DNA of 64,000 bases from Candidatus Polarisedimenticolia bacterium. Its GTDB lineage: Bacteria > Acidobacteriota > Polarisedimenticolia > Gp22-AA2. This document shows, one piece after another, positions 26,155-37,407 of the stretch. Location of the stretch: assembly GCA_036001465.1 (NCBI GenBank), contig DASYUH010000037.1, positions 1 to 64,000 on the forward strand, read 5' to 3'. The notes under the pieces were generated by a model. The model saw only the letters and a program-made list of their open reading frames with translations. It did not search any database and was not told the origin of the DNA. How positions within the stretch are numbered: the first letter of the stretch is position 1; the number at the start of each line of letters is the position of its first letter. Made by a program: the position numbers and the translations under genes.

Positions 26155-29100
26155 ATGGCAGAACCGGATCCGGTCTCTTCCCAGGACAGCCGCGGCGCGG
26201 ACGGCACCGCCTCGGGGGAGGGTGTGCCCCGCCCTCCCGCGCCGCCGGCGCGCGACCCCGCCAACGCGTTCCTCGCCCACCTGCAATCGCTCCGCGAGCT
26301 GCAGATCACGCTGTCGCAGGAGGGGCGTGCCGAAGCGATCCTGAGCGAGGGGACCACCGGCACGGTCGAGATCGTCGGGGCCGACTGCGCCATCGCCATC
26401 GTCGAGCCGTCCAGCGGCATTCCTCCCCTGCGCTTCGGCTGGATCGAGGGGAGGCTGATGGCGCAGCACGAGCTCTCCGTCCTGACCCGGCGCCTCGAGG
26501 AGCCGATCCAGAGGGTCCGCTCGGGCGCGGTGTCGCGCATCGTCCTCGGGGAGGGGGGGAACGGCAACGGCCACGACGCCCACGCCGCGGTCCCGGGCGG
26601 CGGCGCGAAGGAGGCCGGCCCCTTCGGGGCGCTGCTCGTGCTCGGCGTCGATTCCGCCATGGGATCGCGGGGCGCGCTCGTCCTGGGACGGCACGACCCG
26701 GTCCCGTTCAGCCGCGAGCAGGTCTTCCTGGCCGACATCCTGGCGTCGTTCATCGCGCTGCAGATCGAGCGGGCGCTGCGGGCCACCGACGCGCGGCGCG
26801 CCAGCGAGCGCCTTCAAGAAGAATCCGCCGCGACGCACCGGCGGCTCCAGGAGATTTCCCTGGAGCTGGCGGCGCTGAACTCGATCGCGGCGGCCGCGTC
26901 CCCCTCTCTCGACCTCGGGCGGCAGATCGAGGTCTCCCTGCGCAAGGCGATCGAGGTGACCGGCTTCAAGGCGGGGGCCATCGCCCTGGTCGAGGAGAGC
27001 GGCGGCGCCGAGATCCTGAAAGCGGCGCAGAGCGTCGGCGACACGGCCTACCTCGACCTGACCCGCTCGCTGCAGCGCGCCCGCGGCGAGGGGATCGCCG
27101 GCAGGGTCTGGGCGACCGGCGAGGCGGTCGCGTTCGCCGACCTGTCCGCCGGCGCCGCCCTGGAAGGGTGCGCCGACGAGCTGGCCGGGCTCAGGCGCGC
27201 CGGGTACCGGGCGCTGGCCTGCGTGCCGCTGCGCGCCCGCGGGCGCATCATCGGCACCATGGATCTCCTGTCGAACGACGCGCGTCCCGAGCTCGAGAGC
27301 CGCCCGGGGCTGGCCGAATCGATCGCCGGCCAGATCGCCATCGTGATCCAGAACAGCCGGCTGCTCTCGGACATGATGCGTCACAGCCTCGATCTCGAGG
27401 CGCGCAGCGAGAAGAACCTCGCCGATCGGGCGCGCTCCGAGGAGATCCTCGCGGGCCTGCTCGCCGCCGCGCAGGCGGCCAGCCGGACCACCGACCTGCG
27501 CGCTCTCGCCGAGGCCCTGCTGGGCCGCGCGATCGATCTCGCGTCGGCCTCCGCGGGCACCGTCCACCTCGTCGATCCCGGCACGCGCGAGCTCCGGCTC
27601 AAGGCCGAGCGGGGGATGCCGCGCCGGGTCCTGGAGGAGCTCGACGGGCGGGTCGGACGGACGATCATCGGCCGCGCCTTCGAGACCGGCCGGCCGCACC
27701 TCGACCCCGGCGGGACGGCCGAGCACCTGGACGCCGCCACGGGGCTGCGTTTCCAGGCGGCCTTTCCGCTGCGCGCCCTCAGCGGCGTGCACGGCATCCT
27801 GGCGATCGCGCGGGCCGACGATCGCCTGCCCGGCGAGGCCGAGATGCTGGCGCTCACCGCCCTGAGCGAGCTCTTCGGACTGTCGGTCGAGAACGCCCGG
27901 GCCTTCGAGAAGGCGCCCCCGTCGGTCTCGCCCCAGGCCGAGCTCCTGCCGCAGCTCGTGCAGGCGCAGAAGATGGAATCGATCGGCACCCTGGCGGGCG
28001 GCATCGCGCACGAGTTCAACAACATCCTCGCGTCGATCCTCGGCTACGCCAGCCACATCGAGAGCCTCACCTCGAGCGACAACCCGATTCGCCGGGAGGC
28101 CGCGACGATCGCGCGGCAGGCGAAGCGGGCGGCCGAGCTGACCCAGCAGCTGGTGGCGTTCGCGCGCGGCGGGCAGTACTCGCTCGAGCCGGTCGACCTG
28201 AACCGATCGATCGCGGAGACCGTGTCCTTCCTGTCCAAGAGCATCGACCCGCGGATCGTCGTCGAGATCCGCAAGGACCCCGACCTGCCGCTCATCGAGG
28301 CCGACGCCGGGCAGATGCAGCAGGTCCTGATGAACCTGGCGGTGAACGCGGCCGAGGCGATGCCGGATGGGGGCCGCATCACCTTCGAGACGCGGGTCGC
28401 CCATCTCGACCAGTCGTTCGTGCGCTCGCAGCCGGGACTGGCTCCCGGCGACTACGTCGAGGCCGTGGTCGGCGACACCGGCACCGGGATGCAGCCGGAC
28501 ATCGCCGACCGCGTCTTCGAGCCGTTCTTCACGACCAAGACCAACGGCAAGGGGACCGGGCTCGGTCTCTCGGTGGTCTACGGCATCGTGAGGAACCACC
28601 AGGGCCACATCAGCCTCGCGAGCACGCCGGGGCTCGGGACCACCGTGCGCGTCTATTTCCCGGTGCTCGACCGCGGCGCGCGGCGCCCCGCCATGCCCCC
28701 CCAGGAGCCCGCCTCGTCCGGCGGTCCATGGCCCGCTCCCGGGCCCCCGCCCGCCCCGCGACAGCCCGCGAGGACGCCTTTGGGCGCCGGGCCGTTCGAG
28801 CGCGTGAGTGTCTACGAGCCGGACCGGCGCCGGGGGAAGCCGCCCGAACCCGCCGGGCCGCCGTCCGCCGCCACCCCCGCGCCATCGGTCGTCACGACCG
28901 CGCCGTCTCCCGGCCCCGCGGAGCCGCGCGTCCGGGCCCCCGCGGCCGGCAAGGGCCCGGCCCGGGCGCGCATCCTGGTGGTGGACGACGAGGAGGCGAT
29001 CCGCGAGATGACCAGGGACATCCTCGAGTCGGGCGGCTGCGAGGTGGTGCTGGCCACCGACGGCGTGGACGCGCTCGACGTCTACCGGCGCGAGTGGGGC

Positions 29101-29331
29101 CGGCTGGACCTCGTCCTTCTGGACATGGTGATGCCGCGGATGGGCGGCCTCGAGACGTTCCGCCGGCTGATCGGCATGGATCGCGGCGCGCGCATCCTCC
29201 TGTGCAGCGGCTACGCCGACAACGACAAGGCGCAGCGGGCCCTGAAGGAAGGGGCGCTGGGGCTCCTGCCCAAGCCGTTCACCATGACGGAGCTGCTCTC
29301 CCGCATCGACAGAATCCTCGCCAAGCGGTAG
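26155..29331 (+). CDS. cytosolic hybrid histidine kinase with GAF sensor domains
   Basis: A 1058-aa protein with no signal peptide or membrane helix. The order is an N-terminal region with a degenerate GAF-like segment (about 40-215), a coiled coil, a GAF domain (about 240-410), a second coiled coil, a third GAF (about 430-585), then the kinase core. The phosphoacceptor is His619 in GGIAHEFNNILASILGY. The ATP-binding motifs are 'NLAVNAAEAMPDGG' (N box), 'VVGDTGTGM' (G1) and 'GKGTGLGLSVVYGIV' (G2). A Pro/Ala-rich linker of about 90 residues leads to a receiver domain with Asp990 (LVLLDMVMPRMGG) and Lys in 'LPKPF'. It probably senses a small intracellular molecule or redox state. No cognate regulator is adjacent; the regulators at 57644 and 58921 are distant candidates only. 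The selenoprotein-like gene follows 29 nt later on the same strand. Confidence 0.9.
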   Translation: MAEPDPVSSQDSRGADGTASGEGVPRPPAPPARDPANAFLAHLQSLRELQITLSQEGRAEAILSEGTTGTVEIVGADCAIAIVEPSSGIPPLRFGWIEGRLMAQHELSVLTRRLEEPIQRVRSGAVSRIVLGEGGNGNGHDAHAAVPGGGAKEAGPFGALLVLGVDSAMGSRGALVLGRHDPVPFSREQVFLADILASFIALQIERALRATDARRASERLQEESAATHRRLQEISLELAALNSIAAAASPSLDLGRQIEVSLRKAIEVTGFKAGAIALVEESGGAEILKAAQSVGDTAYLDLTRSLQRARGEGIAGRVWATGEAVAFADLSAGAALEGCADELAGLRRAGYRALACVPLRARGRIIGTMDLLSNDARPELESRPGLAESIAGQIAIVIQNSRLLSDMMRHSLDLEARSEKNLADRARSEEILAGLLAAAQAASRTTDLRALAEALLGRAIDLASASAGTVHLVDPGTRELRLKAERGMPRRVLEELDGRVGRTIIGRAFETGRPHLDPGGTAEHLDAATGLRFQAAFPLRALSGVHGILAIARADDRLPGEAEMLALTALSELFGLSVENARAFEKAPPSVSPQAELLPQLVQAQKMESIGTLAGGIAHEFNNILASILGYASHIESLTSSDNPIRREAATIARQAKRAAELTQQLVAFARGGQYSLEPVDLNRSIAETVSFLSKSIDPRIVVEIRKDPDLPLIEADAGQMQQVLMNLAVNAAEAMPDGGRITFETRVAHLDQSFVRSQPGLAPGDYVEAVVGDTGTGMQPDIADRVFEPFFTTKTNGKGTGLGLSVVYGIVRNHQGHISLASTPGLGTTVRVYFPVLDRGARRPAMPPQEPASSGGPWPAPGPPPAPRQPARTPLGAGPFERVSVYEPDRRRGKPPEPAGPPSAATPAPSVVTTAPSPGPAEPRVRAPAAGKGPARARILVVDDEEAIREMTRDILESGGCEVVLATDGVDALDVYRREWGRLDLVLLDMVMPRMGGLETFRRLIGMDRGARILLCSGYADNDKAQRALKEGALGLLPKPFTMTELLSRIDRILAKR

Positions 29332-29360
29332 ACTCCGGCCCGCACGTCGCGGAGGCGGAC

Positions 29361-29714
29361 ATGGCGCCGGCGGAGCTGCTCTTCTTCCACAAGAAGACCT
29401 GAACGACGTGCCGCAGGGCAAGAGGTCTCTTGCTCAAGAAGGGTGCCCGGCTCATCGAACGCGACCTCGGGCGCGAGCCCCTGTCCGAAGACGAGCTTTG
29501 GGATCTCATCGGCACCCTCGATCCGCGCGGGTTCCTCAACACCCGCAACGAGCTGTACCGCAAGAAGAAGATGGCGGAGAACCCCCCGTCCCCTGCGGAG
29601 GCGGTCCGCCTGATGGCGGCCAACCCCAACCTGATCAGGCGGCCGATCGTGGCGCGCGGCCGCGACCGGGTCCTGGGCTTCGACGAGGTGGCGCTGGCGC
29701 GGCTCCTGCGCTGA
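29361..29714 (+). CDS. ArsC/Spx-family thiol reductase with in-frame UGA (probable selenocysteine)
   Basis: Reading from ATG 29361, with GGAGG 5 nt upstream, gives MAPAELLFFHKKT, then TGA at 29400-29402, then TTCRRARGLLLKKG and an uninterrupted ArsC/Spx domain to the stop at 29712. If the TGA is read as Sec the protein is 117 aa, the normal family length. The family has CxxC at this spot (KxCxTCR); here it is U-T-T-C, so Sec replaces the first, catalytic Cys and the second Cys remains. The C-terminal hallmark 'MAANPNLIRRPIVARG' is intact, including the active-site Arg. A hairpin with loop AGGUCU begins 15 nt after the UGA. ArsC-like selenoproteins have been predicted before from ocean metagenomes. 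The alternatives are a nonsense mutation or a sequencing error, or a short start at TTG 29430, which would lose the active site. Function (arsenate or other thiol-dependent reduction) is inferred from the family. Confidence 0.8.
29416..29435 (+). promoter_or_regulatory. candidate bacterial SECIS element
   Basis: GGGCAAG (29416-29422) pairs with CTTGCTC (29429-29435), with one G-U pair. The 6-nt apical loop AGGTCT (29423-29428) is the same as in E. coli fdhF, where SelB recognises it. The GG of the loop starts 22 nt after the last base of the UGA, inside the window expected for bacterial SECIS. No bulged U is visible in the stem. Confidence 0.75.
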
Positions 29715-31482: not shown

Positions 31483-34400
31483 ATGTTCCAGACATCCATC
31501 CGGCTCAAGCGCTCGTCCCTGGTCGTCGCGGTGGCCGTGTTCCTCGGCGCCCGATCGAGTGCGCTCGCCGACCTCCGCCCGGGAGACTGGCTGACGCGAG
31601 CCCAGGAGGAGATTCGCCGGTCGGAGTACGGGTTCTCCCCCCTCGGGGATGGAGCCTGGGCGGCACCCAACCGAGCCCAGAACCTCAGGTCGCGCCTCGG
31701 CGCGGACGGCCTCGAGGTCGCCGTCCGGATGCCCGCCGGCGGCGGGGACGGATGGGCGTTCCGGCTGCGCCTGAGCCGCTTCGGCCGCGCCGGCGCTCTC
31801 GAGACCGTCGAGAATGCGCCGCCAATCCTCGCGTCGGACCGGATCGAACTGCACCGGGAGGCCCTGGCGCTCGTCGAGTGGTATCTCAATGACGCGAGAG
31901 GGATCGAGCAGGGGTTCACCGTCGGAAAAGCTCCTGAGGGCGGAACGGGGCCGATCGTCCTCGAGATGGCCTTCCCCGGTGAGGCGACGACCCGAATGGA
32001 GGACGGCGGCGGCACGGTCGCCTTCACTCCGGCCCCGGGGGGGCCGGTGCTGCGCTATGGAGGTCTCGCCGCCTGGGACGCGGCCGGCCGGGCTCTCGCG
32101 TCCGGCATGGACCTGCGTCCGGGCAGGCTCCGCCTGCACGTCGATGATTCCGGCGCGATCTACCCGATCACCATCGATCCCTTGCTCACGAATCCCGCGT
32201 GGACCACGGAGGGGAACCAGGGGGGCGCCCAGCTCGGCCTCTCGGTCGCCTCGGCCGGGGACGTCAACGGCGACGGCTTCGATGACGTCATCGTGGGCGC
32301 CTACATGTACGACGGCGGCGAGCTCAACGAAGGAAAGGTCTTCGTCTACCACGGCTCCGTCCTGGGGCTGTCCGCCAGCGCCGACTGGACCGCCGAGGGC
32401 AACCAGGCCAACGCGCAGCTCGGCCGGGCGGTGGCGTCGGCGGGGAACGTCAACGGCGACTGCTGCGACGACATCATCGTCGGCGTCCCGTTCTATGACA
32501 TCGGGCCGGTCGCGGGGAACGACCGTGGGCTGGCGCTCGTCTGGCATGGCTCCCTCGCGGGGCTTGGAGATCCCGGGACCCCGACCAACGCCGATTGGGG
32601 GGCGGAGAGCGGTCAGAACAGCTCCCAGTTCGGCTGGTCGGTGGCCTCGGCGGGGGATGTCGACGGCGACGGGTTCGACGAGGTTCTGGTCGGCGCGCCG
32701 CTCTATGAGACCCCGGCCGCCGGAACCGACGACGAGGGGAGGGCATTTCTCTACCGTGGCCTGGCCGGCGGACTCTCCCCGGGGCCTGTCTGGATCGCCG
32801 AGAGCAACCAGTTGGGAGCGCAGTTCGGCTACTCGGTGGCCTCGGCCGGCCATGTGGACTTCGGTCCCTTCGCCGACATCGTGATCGGCGCCCCGCTCTT
32901 CGACGCCGTCGCCGGCGACAACAAGGGGGCGGCCTTCGTGTGGGAGGGTTCTCCCGGCGGGCCGGCCATTCCGGGAATTCCCGGGACCGCCAGCTGGAGC
33001 GCCCTGGGGGAGGACGGCGACCGCTACGGCTGGTCGGTGGCGTCGGCGGGGGACGTGAACGGCGACGGCTTCGGCGACCTCATCGTCGGCGCCCCCCAGG
33101 CCGACGTCCCCGACGCCGACACGAACGAAGGGAGAGCCTTCGTCTACCTCGGTGCGCCGGGGGGCCTGGTCCCGGCGGCACCCGCCGCCTGGACCGTGCA
33201 GAGCAACCAGCTGAACGCCCAGCTCGGCTATTCGGTGGCGTCGGCGGGGGACGTGGACGACGACGGGTATGACGACGTCATCCTGGGGGCACCTTTCTAC
33301 GACGATACCCTGGGAGCCAATAGCGGGCAGGCGTTCCTCTGGCACGGCTCGGCCGCGGACCTGGGGGTGGATGGAACTCCGACCAACGCCCACTGGTTTG
33401 CAACCGTCCAGGCCGGCGCCCAATTCGGGATTTCGGTCGCCTCGGCCGGGGACGTGAACGGCGACGACAACGCCGACGTCCTCGTCGGAGCCTCCTTCTA
33501 CCGTGCCCCGGAACTGAGCGAGGGGGGCGCCTTCGTCTACCTGGGATTCGATCCGCCCGTCTACCTGGAGTTCGGGCCGAAGGGGGATCCGCGCCGGGTC
33601 GAGGCGGTCGTGACCGGCTACTCTTCCGTGGGCTACCTGCCGGCCTCGCAGTACCTGGTGTCGGGCTCCGCCACGGTCAAGATGGGGAACTGCGCCGTGC
33701 CGGCCGCCTGCACGAGATCGTTCTCGTTCGCCGCCCTCACGGTGACGCGCGACGCCGCGGACACCGCCCTGAATGGCAAGCCGGCGTTCCGGGTCGTGGC
33801 GGGATCGGCGACCGTGTCCGCGCCTCTCGACCCGATCATCTTCCCGGCGGCCGACGATCTCGACATCCGCCTGCACTCCTTCACCCTCGGTCCGTCCGGG
33901 GCCGCGAGCCTCCCGGGGGTCGTGGGGCCGCCCAGGCTCGGGATGTGGCTGAAGCTTCCGGACAGCCTGACGAGCGCTGGCGGCGAGGATCTGCCGTTCC
34001 CGCCGGTACTTCTCGAGCAGGACCTCGATTTCGCCATCTCGATCGCCCTGGATCCGGCCCTGTTCTACATCGCTCCGAAGGACTACCCGTTCCAGATCAG
34101 GCCCCAGGCCGGCACCTCGGTCGTCCTCACCCGCAGCCGGGCGGAGCTCGGCCTCTCGGATCTCGTCTTCCCGGAGAAGGAGAGAGGCGAGGAGATCGCG
34201 CCCGGGCAGACGCGCTGCGATGTCTCCGGCGCCTGCGGGTCGGCGGACGACGCGAACGACGGCATCTTCGGCCTCGGCTGGAGCGTGAACTCGCCCGCCA
34301 CCCCTTATTTCGTACGGAGCGGCCTGCGCGCCACCCTGTCCTCGGCGCCGGCCGGGGCGACGTACGCGCTCCTGTTCCCGGCCGGGGCGAGCATCGGCCT

Positions 34401-37400
34401 GAGCGCCGGGTCGAGCATCGAGTTCACGGACACCGAGCCGGGCGGCGGATCGCTCTCCGGCACCCTGACGCTGACGCTTCACACCGGCGACGTGATCGCC
34501 GAAGCGGCGTTGGACGGCTACCTGATCCATGACGACTGCACGGGACAGAGATCGATCTCCCTCGCCTTCATCGGCGGGACGCTCCTGCCAGGCGGCGAGC
34601 TGCGCATCCCTCCGCCGGGGCTGTCCGGCCTCAGCGAGCTGTTCTGGGGAGACACGGGAAACTGGGACGACCCGGACCTGCGCGATCCGCGTGGCTTCTT
34701 CGCCGGGGGGCTCGGTCCGGACTCGCTGTCATTCTTCGCCCCGGGAACGGTGGCCCGGATCGGCGTGACGGAGCCGACGGTCCAGGACCACCTGCTCGCC
34801 AGGCAGGGAGGTGGCCCCACGGATGAGCCCGGAATCTATGCCGGGCTCAACATCGACCTGACCGCGGCGGCGGGGACGGTCGGGATCGACACCACCTGTC
34901 CGCCCCCCGACCCGCCGGCCTCCCCTCATTCCTTCACCGCCAGCTCGGACAGGACGCAGCTCTACGTCCGCCGCTCGGGGGTCAGCGGCATCGCCGACGC
35001 CGGGACCCTGGCGCTGCCGGGGGTCGACTTCCCCTACATGGGATACCGGATGACGCTCGGGCGGTTCGGAGCGTCCATCCTGGACAACATTCCCTTGGCG
35101 GCCGGCAGCGGCCTTGTGGTGAACAGCATCGTCATCCCTTCCCCCTCCGACGTCCGATTCACCTTCAGCTCGCCGACCTCCGTCGATGGCTGCGCCAACC
35201 TGGGCGAGAACGGCCTCGGCCAGATGGCCGACGCGGGCGATCCCAAGGTCCTGGCCTGCTGGCAGGCCGACATCGTCCCGCGAGCGGCGCGGCTGGACGT
35301 GGCCGACTGCGCCGGCGGTCCCTGCTCGCCGGTGATCCCGGCCAACTGCCCCGATCTCCTCTGCGAGCAGCTCCGTTACCTCCGGGTCTCGGCGGAAGCG
35401 CCGCTCGATCTGCAATCCCAGATCCTCGGAGTGCCCGACCCGCCACCGCCCGCCTCGGATCGCTTCGAGGACATGGTTCCGATGGACTTCACCCCCGAGC
35501 CGGAGGGGCCTCTGGCGTGCAGCGACATCATCCTGACCGGGAGCCACGGGTCGATCCGCAACAAGCTGGAGAAGGACCACGGGTTCGACATCGACCTGAT
35601 GCACGCCAGCCTGGAGCCGAGGAACCCTTCGTGCGGAGGAGCGGGGGCGGGTCGCGGGCCCGGCGCATCCCCCTCCGTGATCGACGCCGACACCCCGCGC
35701 TACGACGTGACCGGGGAGATCCTGGTGCCCTTCTACGATGCGCCGGACAGTTGCATCCGAGTCACCCAGGGGGGCGGCGTCGATACGTTCGGAGACTGCG
35801 GCGCTTTCGACAGCGTGGCCAACAAGGTGCACGTCAGCCGGAGGATCCTGGCGGGGCTCGTGAATCTCGATTTCGACCTGAAGTACATGCCGCCGATTCG
35901 CGATGTCGGCTCCGTCCGGGACACCGCCGCCCGCTTCGTCTCCGAGAGCGGCGTCCTCGATTTCAAGTTCTTCAAGCTGCCGGCCCTGGTCAAGCTGTTC
36001 GGCGACAATGCCAGCCTCGGCGACTTTTCGCCCGACGAGTTCCTGCCGCGCCTGCGGCCGGAGCTCTACCTTGGGTTCCTGTCCGATCTGGCCCTGTACA
36101 CCGAGGCGACCGAGAACCCGTCCGTCTGCGACTCGGACTGCACGGGGTTCCTGAACGGCATGATGAAATTCGAAAACCTCGACCTGCCGGGGGAAATTCC
36201 CTCGGACGCCGGCGAGCTGGTGCCGGCCCTCAAGGCGGGGGCCGCCCGGCTGGGATTGCCGGCGAGCTTCAATCTGCGCTCCTACGCCGCGGGGGCGATG
36301 CGCGATGCCGTGAGCGACCTCCTGCCGGCCGATGTGGTGCGGGCCGCGGGCCGCGTGAAGGGGGTCATCAACGGCATCCGGGACGTGGCGAGCGTCGCCC
36401 AGCAGCCGTTCAAGGTCCTCAACCTGTCGGGGCCGGGAGCGTTCCGGCTGGGCCAGGGCGCCTCGGTCGCCAGGGACTTCGCCATCGACACCCTCAACAT
36501 CGACGCCGACGTCGACATCCTCGGCTTCCTGAACTTCAAGGGGTTCGTGAACTTCAACAGCCACACCGCCAACACCGAGGACGAGTTCGGCGCCGAGGAC
36601 ACGGCGGACGTGACCGTCGGGGCGCACAACGTCGATCTCGGCTGGGCCATCGACGGCGTGCGGGCGAAGACGGTGCAGGCCACGTTCCGCTTCGATCCTC
36701 CCACCTTCGCCGAGCCGGATCGTTTCCGGGTCTGGGGCTTCGACGGAGAGATCGATCTCTCGGGCGTGAAGTTCGGCGAGGTGGAGTTCGACGAGCTCGG
36801 CTTCTGCCTGGGGATGGGGGACCCCGACAAGGACGTCTCCGGCGACGACTACTACTACCTCGCCGGCATGGGGCGCGGCAAGTACAAGGCGGTGACCGCC
36901 TCCGGCGGGTTCTTCCTCGGCAAGTCGGTGGACATCGCGCCGATCCAGCGGATCGACCCGGAGGTCGGCGAGGTCCTCGAAGGGCTCGACACGCTCACCG
37001 GGATCTACGCGCGGGCGGAGGCCAGCTTCCCGGTGATGGGCGGACCGGAGTGCGTCCCGTACCGCCTGAACGCGGGAGGCGGGGCGGCCTTCTGGCTCTT
37101 CGAGGAGGGCCCGACGTTCGGCGCCAAGATCCGAGCCTATGCGACGGGCTCGCTCGTCTGTGCCGTCACGGCGCGGGCCGACCTGACCCTCCTGGGAGGG
37201 CTGACCGACGACGTCTGGCATCTCGGCGGATACGGGTTCCTGGCCGGCGGTGTCGGGTGGTGCGAGCCGAACGACTGGGACACCCGCCGGGACGTCCTGA
37301 ACGACGACTGGTGCCTCTCCTGCGTCATGGACGGTGAGTTCAGCACCGATTCGCAGAGCGGCACGATCGATGGAGATCTCAATGGCCCCGACTGCAGCGG

Positions 37401-37407
37401 TCCTTAG
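31483..37407 (+). CDS. giant secreted FG-GAP propeller protein
   Basis: A 1974-aa protein with a signal peptide (KRSSLVVAVAVFLGARSSALA). AGGAG stands 7 nt before the ATG. Residues about 240-690 hold seven FG-GAP/integrin-type repeats with the core SVASAGDVNGDGFDDVIVGA, enough for a full seven-bladed beta-propeller; the DxDxDG loops should bind calcium. The N-terminal 200 residues and the last 1270 are not matched to any family I know. They contain beta-rich stretches, several Cys pairs ('CDVSGACGSAD', 'CDSDCTGF') and an amphipathic region near 1590-1680. No membrane anchor, LPXTG, PEP-CTERM or type IX sorting signal is obvious. The end overlaps the next start by 26 nt. It may be a surface or matrix protein; function unknown. 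Confidence 0.8.
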   Translation: MFQTSIRLKRSSLVVAVAVFLGARSSALADLRPGDWLTRAQEEIRRSEYGFSPLGDGAWAAPNRAQNLRSRLGADGLEVAVRMPAGGGDGWAFRLRLSRFGRAGALETVENAPPILASDRIELHREALALVEWYLNDARGIEQGFTVGKAPEGGTGPIVLEMAFPGEATTRMEDGGGTVAFTPAPGGPVLRYGGLAAWDAAGRALASGMDLRPGRLRLHVDDSGAIYPITIDPLLTNPAWTTEGNQGGAQLGLSVASAGDVNGDGFDDVIVGAYMYDGGELNEGKVFVYHGSVLGLSASADWTAEGNQANAQLGRAVASAGNVNGDCCDDIIVGVPFYDIGPVAGNDRGLALVWHGSLAGLGDPGTPTNADWGAESGQNSSQFGWSVASAGDVDGDGFDEVLVGAPLYETPAAGTDDEGRAFLYRGLAGGLSPGPVWIAESNQLGAQFGYSVASAGHVDFGPFADIVIGAPLFDAVAGDNKGAAFVWEGSPGGPAIPGIPGTASWSALGEDGDRYGWSVASAGDVNGDGFGDLIVGAPQADVPDADTNEGRAFVYLGAPGGLVPAAPAAWTVQSNQLNAQLGYSVASAGDVDDDGYDDVILGAPFYDDTLGANSGQAFLWHGSAADLGVDGTPTNAHWFATVQAGAQFGISVASAGDVNGDDNADVLVGASFYRAPELSEGGAFVYLGFDPPVYLEFGPKGDPRRVEAVVTGYSSVGYLPASQYLVSGSATVKMGNCAVPAACTRSFSFAALTVTRDAADTALNGKPAFRVVAGSATVSAPLDPIIFPAADDLDIRLHSFTLGPSGAASLPGVVGPPRLGMWLKLPDSLTSAGGEDLPFPPVLLEQDLDFAISIALDPALFYIAPKDYPFQIRPQAGTSVVLTRSRAELGLSDLVFPEKERGEEIAPGQTRCDVSGACGSADDANDGIFGLGWSVNSPATPYFVRSGLRATLSSAPAGATYALLFPAGASIGLSAGSSIEFTDTEPGGGSLSGTLTLTLHTGDVIAEAALDGYLIHDDCTGQRSISLAFIGGTLLPGGELRIPPPGLSGLSELFWGDTGNWDDPDLRDPRGFFAGGLGPDSLSFFAPGTVARIGVTEPTVQDHLLARQGGGPTDEPGIYAGLNIDLTAAAGTVGIDTTCPPPDPPASPHSFTASSDRTQLYVRRSGVSGIADAGTLALPGVDFPYMGYRMTLGRFGASILDNIPLAAGSGLVVNSIVIPSPSDVRFTFSSPTSVDGCANLGENGLGQMADAGDPKVLACWQADIVPRAARLDVADCAGGPCSPVIPANCPDLLCEQLRYLRVSAEAPLDLQSQILGVPDPPPPASDRFEDMVPMDFTPEPEGPLACSDIILTGSHGSIRNKLEKDHGFDIDLMHASLEPRNPSCGGAGAGRGPGASPSVIDADTPRYDVTGEILVPFYDAPDSCIRVTQGGGVDTFGDCGAFDSVANKVHVSRRILAGLVNLDFDLKYMPPIRDVGSVRDTAARFVSESGVLDFKFFKLPALVKLFGDNASLGDFSPDEFLPRLRPELYLGFLSDLALYTEATENPSVCDSDCTGFLNGMMKFENLDLPGEIPSDAGELVPALKAGAARLGLPASFNLRSYAAGAMRDAVSDLLPADVVRAAGRVKGVINGIRDVASVAQQPFKVLNLSGPGAFRLGQGASVARDFAIDTLNIDADVDILGFLNFKGFVNFNSHTANTEDEFGAEDTADVTVGAHNVDLGWAIDGVRAKTVQATFRFDPPTFAEPDRFRVWGFDGEIDLSGVKFGEVEFDELGFCLGMGDPDKDVSGDDYYYLAGMGRGKYKAVTASGGFFLGKSVDIAPIQRIDPEVGEVLEGLDTLTGIYARAEASFPVMGGPECVPYRLNAGGGAAFWLFEEGPTFGAKIRAYATGSLVCAVTARADLTLLGGLTDDVWHLGGYGFLAGGVGWCEPNDWDTRRDVLNDDWCLSCVMDGEFSTDSQSGTIDGDLNGPDCSGP
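32209..33545 (+). repeat. seven FG-GAP coding repeats (one propeller)
   Basis: The core SVASAGDVxGDGxxD is encoded near 32245, 32425, 32640, 32838, 33040, 33235 and 33436, a step of about 180-215 bases. Repeat 4 (SVASAGHVDFGPFADI) has lost the DxDxDG calcium loop. Confidence 0.85.

What the first reader, a model, noticed from the sequence alone, without database searches (positions are those of the whole stretch)
29361..29714. Probable selenocysteine-containing ArsC/Spx-family protein with a SECIS hairpin
The ArsC/Spx frame is open from an ATG with a good ribosome site except for one TGA (29400-29402), at exactly the position of the first, catalytic Cys (family KxCxTCR, here U-T-T-C). The second Cys, the RRPIV motif and the family length are intact. 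Twenty-one bases separate the UGA from a GGUC in the loop of a 7-bp hairpin whose apical loop, AGGUCU, equals that of the E. coli fdhF SECIS. Frame, position, hairpin and loop all agree, which a random nonsense mutation would not produce. Automated gene callers would start at TTG 29430 and lose the active site. ArsC-like selenoproteins are known as predictions; its placement between a hybrid kinase and an ECF sigma factor is, as far as I know, not described.
Basis: partly seen in the sequence, partly recalled or inferred. Interest (0 to 1): 0.9.

Follow-up and report, generated by a model that had tools for sequence, protein, structure and literature searches.

The report
Selenocysteine-containing ArsC/Spx-like redox protein
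A small bacterial redox protein of the arsenate-reductase/Spx family is encoded with a UGA 'stop' codon at its active site that the cell almost certainly reads as the rare amino acid selenocysteine; it is a solid new member of an already known kind of selenoprotein, which standard gene annotation would cut short.

Summary
Confirmed. The ArsC/Spx-family gene 29361-29714 (+) has one in-frame UGA (29400-29402) at the catalytic Cys position (UTTC), followed 21 nt later by GGUC in the loop of a 7-8 bp hairpin. The genome, an Acidobacteriota MAG, encodes SelA, SelB, SelD and tRNA-Sec(UCA). Over 30 Acidobacteriota genomes carry an ArsC-like homologue with in-frame UGA; in close relatives the hairpin is kept and covaries (G-C to A-U), and nested Cys homologues lack it. 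Sequence after the UGA is under purifying selection. All 32 surveyed genomes with a UGA homologue have tRNA-Sec or selA. The stem is written in codons of 2-4% usage; synonymous recoding gives such a GGUC hairpin about 5 times per million. UxxC ArsC/Spx selenoproteins were predicted in 2008 (GOS survey) and one family is modelled as NF041106; this subfamily falls far below that cut-off. The upstream hybrid kinase is conserved within the family, the sigma factor was not found in relatives; in related lineages a rhodanese gene lies upstream. Most likely role: Sec-dependent thiol/selenol oxidoreductase, substrate unknown. Good annotation find, modest surprise.

The parts
29361..29714 (+). Sec-containing ArsC/Spx-like protein, 117 aa with Sec at residue 14
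29351..29355 (+). Shine-Dalgarno GGAGG, 5 nt before the ATG
   Evidence: sequence
29400..29402 (+). in-frame UGA read as selenocysteine (codon 14)
29409..29411 (+). Cys17, second residue of the UxxC redox motif
29416..29435 (+). SECIS hairpin GGGCAAGA-GGUC-UCUUGCUC; loop 29424-29427, 21 nt after the UGA
29544..29546 (+). Arg62, invariant in the alignment; aligns with Spx R60
29640..29642 (+). Arg94 of the RRP motif, nearly invariant; aligns with Spx R92
26155..29331 (+). GAF-HisKA-HATPase-REC hybrid kinase, 29 nt upstream; homologue found upstream in G001-G004 and G006

Best explanation
The gene encodes a 117-residue ArsC/Spx-fold protein whose catalytic residue is selenocysteine. During translation the ribosome meets UGA at codon 14; the hairpin beginning 13 nt downstream binds SelB carrying Sec-tRNA(Sec), and Sec is inserted instead of termination (mechanism inferred from established bacterial SECIS biology; all components are present in the genome). 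In the product, Sec14 and Cys17 form a UxxC pair at the start of the first helix, expected to cycle between selenol/thiol and selenenylsulfide, with Arg62 and Arg94 near the active site to hold an anionic or thiolate substrate. The protein most probably works as a fast thiol/selenol oxidoreductase; the physiological substrate (disulfide, persulfide or an oxyanion such as arsenate) is not established. Shown: frame, conserved UGA, SECIS conservation and covariation, Sec machinery, purifying selection, predicted fold. Inferred: Sec insertion itself, the redox chemistry, any physiological role. The confidence given is for selenocysteine insertion; for the oxidoreductase role it is about 0.7.
For: selB 347 bits, selA 541 bits, selD 364 bits with an in-frame TGA, tRNA-Sec 73.9 bits with anticodon TCA, all in the same MAG. 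UGA at the same column in genus, family and other Acidobacteriota, Cys in nested relatives L025, L030, L068. Hairpin kept in close UGA forms with the double change CAAGAGGUCUCUUG <-> CAAAAGGUCUUUUG, 100% of cells paired; a second SECIS sequence type with its own GC/AU double change; not kept in the Cys forms. Stem codons are rare ones; a GGTC-loop >=7 bp stem arises at 5e-6 by synonymous recoding. dN/dS after the UGA 0.21-0.36 against seven homologues. tRNA-Sec in 25/32 genomes with a UGA homologue vs 19/53 with a Cys one, Fisher p = 2.7e-4; the other seven UGA genomes all have selA, three Cys controls have none. Predicted fold pLDDT 93, best PDB matches Spx, YffB and ArsC, mostly TM 0.7-0.85.
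Against: No direct evidence of selenium in the protein. G003 (same genus) lacks the UGA because the 5' part of the gene is missing, by deletion or misassembly. The total folding energy around the hairpin is not exceptional, and Rfam gave no SECIS match.
Confidence: 0.95

Rival explanations
1. Pseudogene or sequencing error: the UGA is a random nonsense change in a dying Cys-type ArsC-like gene.
For: A single in-frame stop in a MAG is often just that; G003 in the same genus has a damaged 5' end.
Against: The same UGA in independent genomes of the genus, family and phylum, purifying selection after it, conserved covarying hairpin, Sec machinery present.
Confidence: 0.02
2. Translation restart: a protein without the active site begins at TTG 29430, and the upstream part with the UGA is a regulatory leader.
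For: A TTG start gives a 94-aa ORF.
Against: The lost part holds the catalytic motif and first strand and is conserved as protein in homologues (K11, U/C14, T15, C17, R18 invariant). TTG 29430 lies inside the conserved hairpin stem.
Confidence: 0.03
3. The Sec protein is an Spx-like RNA polymerase-binding regulator, with the UxxC pair as the redox switch.
For: Closest solved structures by sequence and fold are Spx; C10, C13, R60 and R92 of Spx align with U14, C17, R62 and R94; TIGR01617 (Spx/MgsR) is the best NCBIfam match.
Against: Spx G52, part of the alpha-CTD interface (PMC2801614), aligns with P55 here and P/C/Y/H in close relatives. The score 54.2 is below the TIGR01617 cut-off 75.05.
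Confidence: 0.1
4. It is a Sec-dependent arsenate reductase in the strict sense.
For: ArsC fold, E. coli ArsC structures match, two of the arginines expected near the active site are kept.
Against: TIGR00014 score 33 is far below the cut-off 106; the third arsenate-binding arginine (R107 in E. coli ArsC, from memory) appears replaced by the GFDE segment; no ars genes were recognised by eye among the flanking ORFs.
Confidence: 0.15

Closest known systems
'Arsenate reductase 2' selenoproteins of the Global Ocean Sampling survey (cd03032, UxxC; PMC2398784)
   Same: ArsC-type family (cd03032 is the Spx subgroup of ArsC, from memory) with Sec as the first residue of UxxC; 42 Sec sequences listed there.
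   Different: Predicted from marine metagenomes; no sequence from that set could be aligned here, so whether this subfamily was among them is unknown.
NF041106 ArsC_rel_Se_1, ArsC family (seleno)protein (UxxC; listed in PMC13188914)
   Same: ArsC relative with Sec in UxxC.
   Different: P0001 scores 28.9 bits against a cut-off of 85; the best E-value of any A1 member is only 2.4e-8.
Spx (B. subtilis and relatives)
   Same: Fold and active-site layout; CxxC at the same place.
   Different: Sec in place of Cys10, Gly52 not conserved, 25-28% identity in the structure alignments.
E. coli fdhF SECIS
   Same: AGGUCU apical loop close behind the UGA (fdhF details from memory).
   Different: UGA-to-GGUC spacing is 21 nt here (18 in fdhF, from memory), and there is no bulged U in the stem.

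Membership tests
Pfam PF03960 ArsC family | score above the gathering cut-off | tested here: met
   56.2 vs 24 bits
Bacterial selenoprotein | in-frame UGA at a redox Cys position, Cys in homologues | tested here: met
Bacterial selenoprotein | SECIS hairpin just downstream of the UGA with G in the apical loop | tested here: met
Bacterial selenoprotein | SelA, SelB, SelD and tRNA-Sec in the genome | tested here: met
Bacterial selenoprotein | selenium in the protein | not testable with these tools
   needs 75Se labelling or mass spectrometry
NF041106 ArsC_rel_Se_1 | score above the curated cut-off | tested here: not met
   28.9 vs 85 bits
TIGR01617 Spx/MgsR | score above the curated cut-off | tested here: not met
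   54.2 vs 75.05 bits
Spx | alpha-CTD contact residue Gly52 | tested here: not met
   aligns with Pro55; role of G52 from PMC2801614
TIGR00014 ArsC arsenate reductase | score above the curated cut-off | tested here: not met
   33.3 vs 106.05 bits
GOS 'Arsenate reductase 2' (cd03032) | best match to CDD cd03032 together with UxxC | tested here: inconclusive
   UxxC met; CDD is not available here, Spx is the nearest solved structure

The most novel reading that the evidence does not exclude
The Sec protein is a dedicated partner in a redox-signalling or sulfane-sulfur module: encoded behind a rhodanese in several Acidobacteriota lineages and behind a GAF-hybrid kinase in this family, it would read or repair the persulfide/thiol state and pass it to the kinase, making a selenium-based sensor input.
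Probability: 0.08. Interest if true: 0.65.

Novelty: new member of a known kind. Interest (0 to 1): 0.38.

Why it matters
It adds a well-supported selenoprotein subfamily spread through Acidobacteriota, with SECIS elements of several sequence types and nested Cys replacements that lack the element. The NCBIfam models scanned do not cover the window protein above cut-off, and an ordinary ORF rule would give a headless 94-aa protein. Its linkage to a rhodanese or to a hybrid kinase makes a role testable.

Tried and rejected
Generic folding energy of the 56-nt stretch: uninformative (z = 0.43), so replaced by a synonymous-recoding control. Rfam scan for SECIS families: nothing. A conserved kinase-ArsC-sigma operon: the sigma factor was not found beside the gene in relatives, though many loci carry only 1.5 kb of flank. 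The rhodanese found beside the gene in other lineages: its only match in the own genome is a different rhodanese on contig C75. Tree of 50 homologues: Sec and Cys change state about 8 times; deep joins are long-branched, so no direction is claimed there. Weak tRNA-Sec hits of about 50 bits also occur in Cys control genomes, and in the own genome hits of that strength are tRNA-Ser, so selA was used instead for those genomes.

Full report
What is there. The ArsC/Spx frame runs from ATG 29361 to TGA 29714 with one internal TGA at 29400-29402. Read with Sec, the protein is MAPAELLFFHKKTUTTCRRARGLLLKKG..., Pfam ArsC 56.2 bits, nearest solved sequences Spx. The UGA aligns with Spx Cys10, and Cys17 with Cys13. 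Twenty-one nt after the UGA lies GGUC in the loop of an 8-bp hairpin (29416-29435). A mechanical ORF list gives only the TTG 29430 version.

The genome decodes Sec. The MAG (Acidobacteriota, judged from the titled records of its closest relatives; 4.58 Mb, 114 contigs, completeness 100) has SelB (347 bits, cut-off 242), SelA (541 bits), SelD (364 bits, itself with an in-frame TGA) and a tRNA-Sec with anticodon TCA.

The UGA is conserved and the gene is alive. Of the six other genomes of the genus and family with a homologue, five have the UGA at the same column; the sixth (G003) has lost the 5' end of the gene. Many other Acidobacteriota have it too. Relatives L025 (TGC), L030 (TGT) and L068 (TGT) have Cys and sit inside the Sec-rich clade. 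dN/dS after the UGA is 0.21-0.36 against seven homologues; the 13 codons before it are too few to judge.

The hairpin is a selected element. In eight close sequences all seven pairs counted are kept in every sequence, with one double change (A-U in four, G-C in four); only 3 of 500 shuffles reach the covariation score, and slid versions pair 32-57% of cells. That is one covarying pair, so the covariation alone is modest. A second sequence type (GCCAGGAGUUUCCUGGC) in other lineages shows its own GC/AU double change, and a distant clade (L046-L051) carries a third, CAAGGC-GGUC-GCCUUG, 17 nt after the UGA. Not every distant UGA homologue shows an obvious hairpin of these types (for example L052, L057, L079). 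The nested Cys homologues L025 and L030 lack it, and L068 keeps only a short stem with an A-rich loop and no loop G. In the window the stem uses GCA, AGA, GGT and TTG, codons of 2-4% usage in neighbouring genes; 200,000 synonymous recodings gave a >=7-bp stem with a GGTC loop at 5e-6. Any >=7-bp hairpin with any loop is common (19%), so the loop identity and the conservation carry the weight.

Machinery follows the UGA. Of 32 genomes whose homologue contains an in-frame TGA, 25 have a strong tRNA-Sec hit; of 53 with an uninterrupted (Cys-type) homologue, 19 do (Fisher p = 2.7e-4; genomes are related, so the p-value is optimistic). The remaining seven UGA genomes all have selA over its cut-off; three Cys control genomes, including G297 of the nested Cys form L068, have none.

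Fold and function. AlphaFold2 gives pLDDT 93, pTM 0.81; Foldseek ranks Spx first (E 2e-8, TM about 0.8), with YffB and ArsC close behind. U14, C17, R62 and R94 line up with Spx C10, C13, R60 and R92; Spx G52, an alpha-CTD contact (PMC2801614), is not kept. I therefore favour a thiol/selenol oxidoreductase over an Spx regulator or a strict arsenate reductase; the substrate is unknown.

Neighbourhood. A homologue of the hybrid kinase (GAF, HisKA, HATPase, REC) lies in the upstream flank in G001, G002, G003, G004 and G006; the sigma-factor-like gene (sigma-70 regions 2 and 4 just under the Pfam cut-offs) was seen only in the window itself. In six other loci (L023, L025-L028, L031, covering Sec and Cys forms) a rhodanese with a [YF]CHHGxRSLN-type motif ends from a few to about 200 nt before the ArsC-like gene; Pfam Rhodanese 56 bits in the two tested. 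This hints at sulfur or persulfide chemistry but is only an association.

Known or new. UxxC ArsC relatives with Sec are catalogued: GOS 'Arsenate reductase 2', cd03032, UxxC, 42 sequences (PMC2398784), and NF041106 in the 2026 review (PMC13188914). This protein fails the NF041106 cut-off (29 vs 85) and the Spx/MgsR and ArsC cut-offs. I file it as a new member of a known kind. No paper in the held library combined selenoprotein, selenocysteine, arsenate reductase and Acidobacteria, which is weak evidence since most subscription papers are missing.

Noticed in passing
G000 contig C75:1944-2258 (L093): A rhodanese-domain protein in the own genome has an in-frame TGA in the motif YCTUPNEATSA, shared by G001, G003 and G004: very likely another selenoprotein (rhodanese with CxU is a kind listed in PMC13188914).
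   Followed up: partly
G000 contig C13:57411-58343 (L017): selD of the own genome is itself interrupted by one in-frame TGA, as in known Sec-containing SelD.
   Followed up: no
L038 (G003), about 1780-1850 on the - strand: In one congener the response-regulator end runs straight into the SECIS hairpin of the ArsC-like gene; the ATG and UGA are missing. Deletion by short homology or misassembly.
   Followed up: partly
L023 3474-3797, L028 3659-3994, L031 3639-3989, and L025-L027: Rhodanese gene directly upstream of Sec and Cys forms of the ArsC-like gene in several lineages.
   Followed up: partly
L046-L051: A more distant ArsC-like clade (motif ICTRTUSTCRKA) with a third SECIS sequence type; the member tested is also below all NCBIfam cut-offs.
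   Followed up: partly
L028, L081: The stem of the second SECIS type seems to need a bulged U in these two, reminiscent of E. coli fdhF (bulge from memory).
   Followed up: no
window 31483-37407: Open reading frame of 1974 aa with repeated GDVNGDGxDD (FG-GAP-like) motifs, after a sigma-70-like and a zf-HC2-like gene.
   Followed up: no
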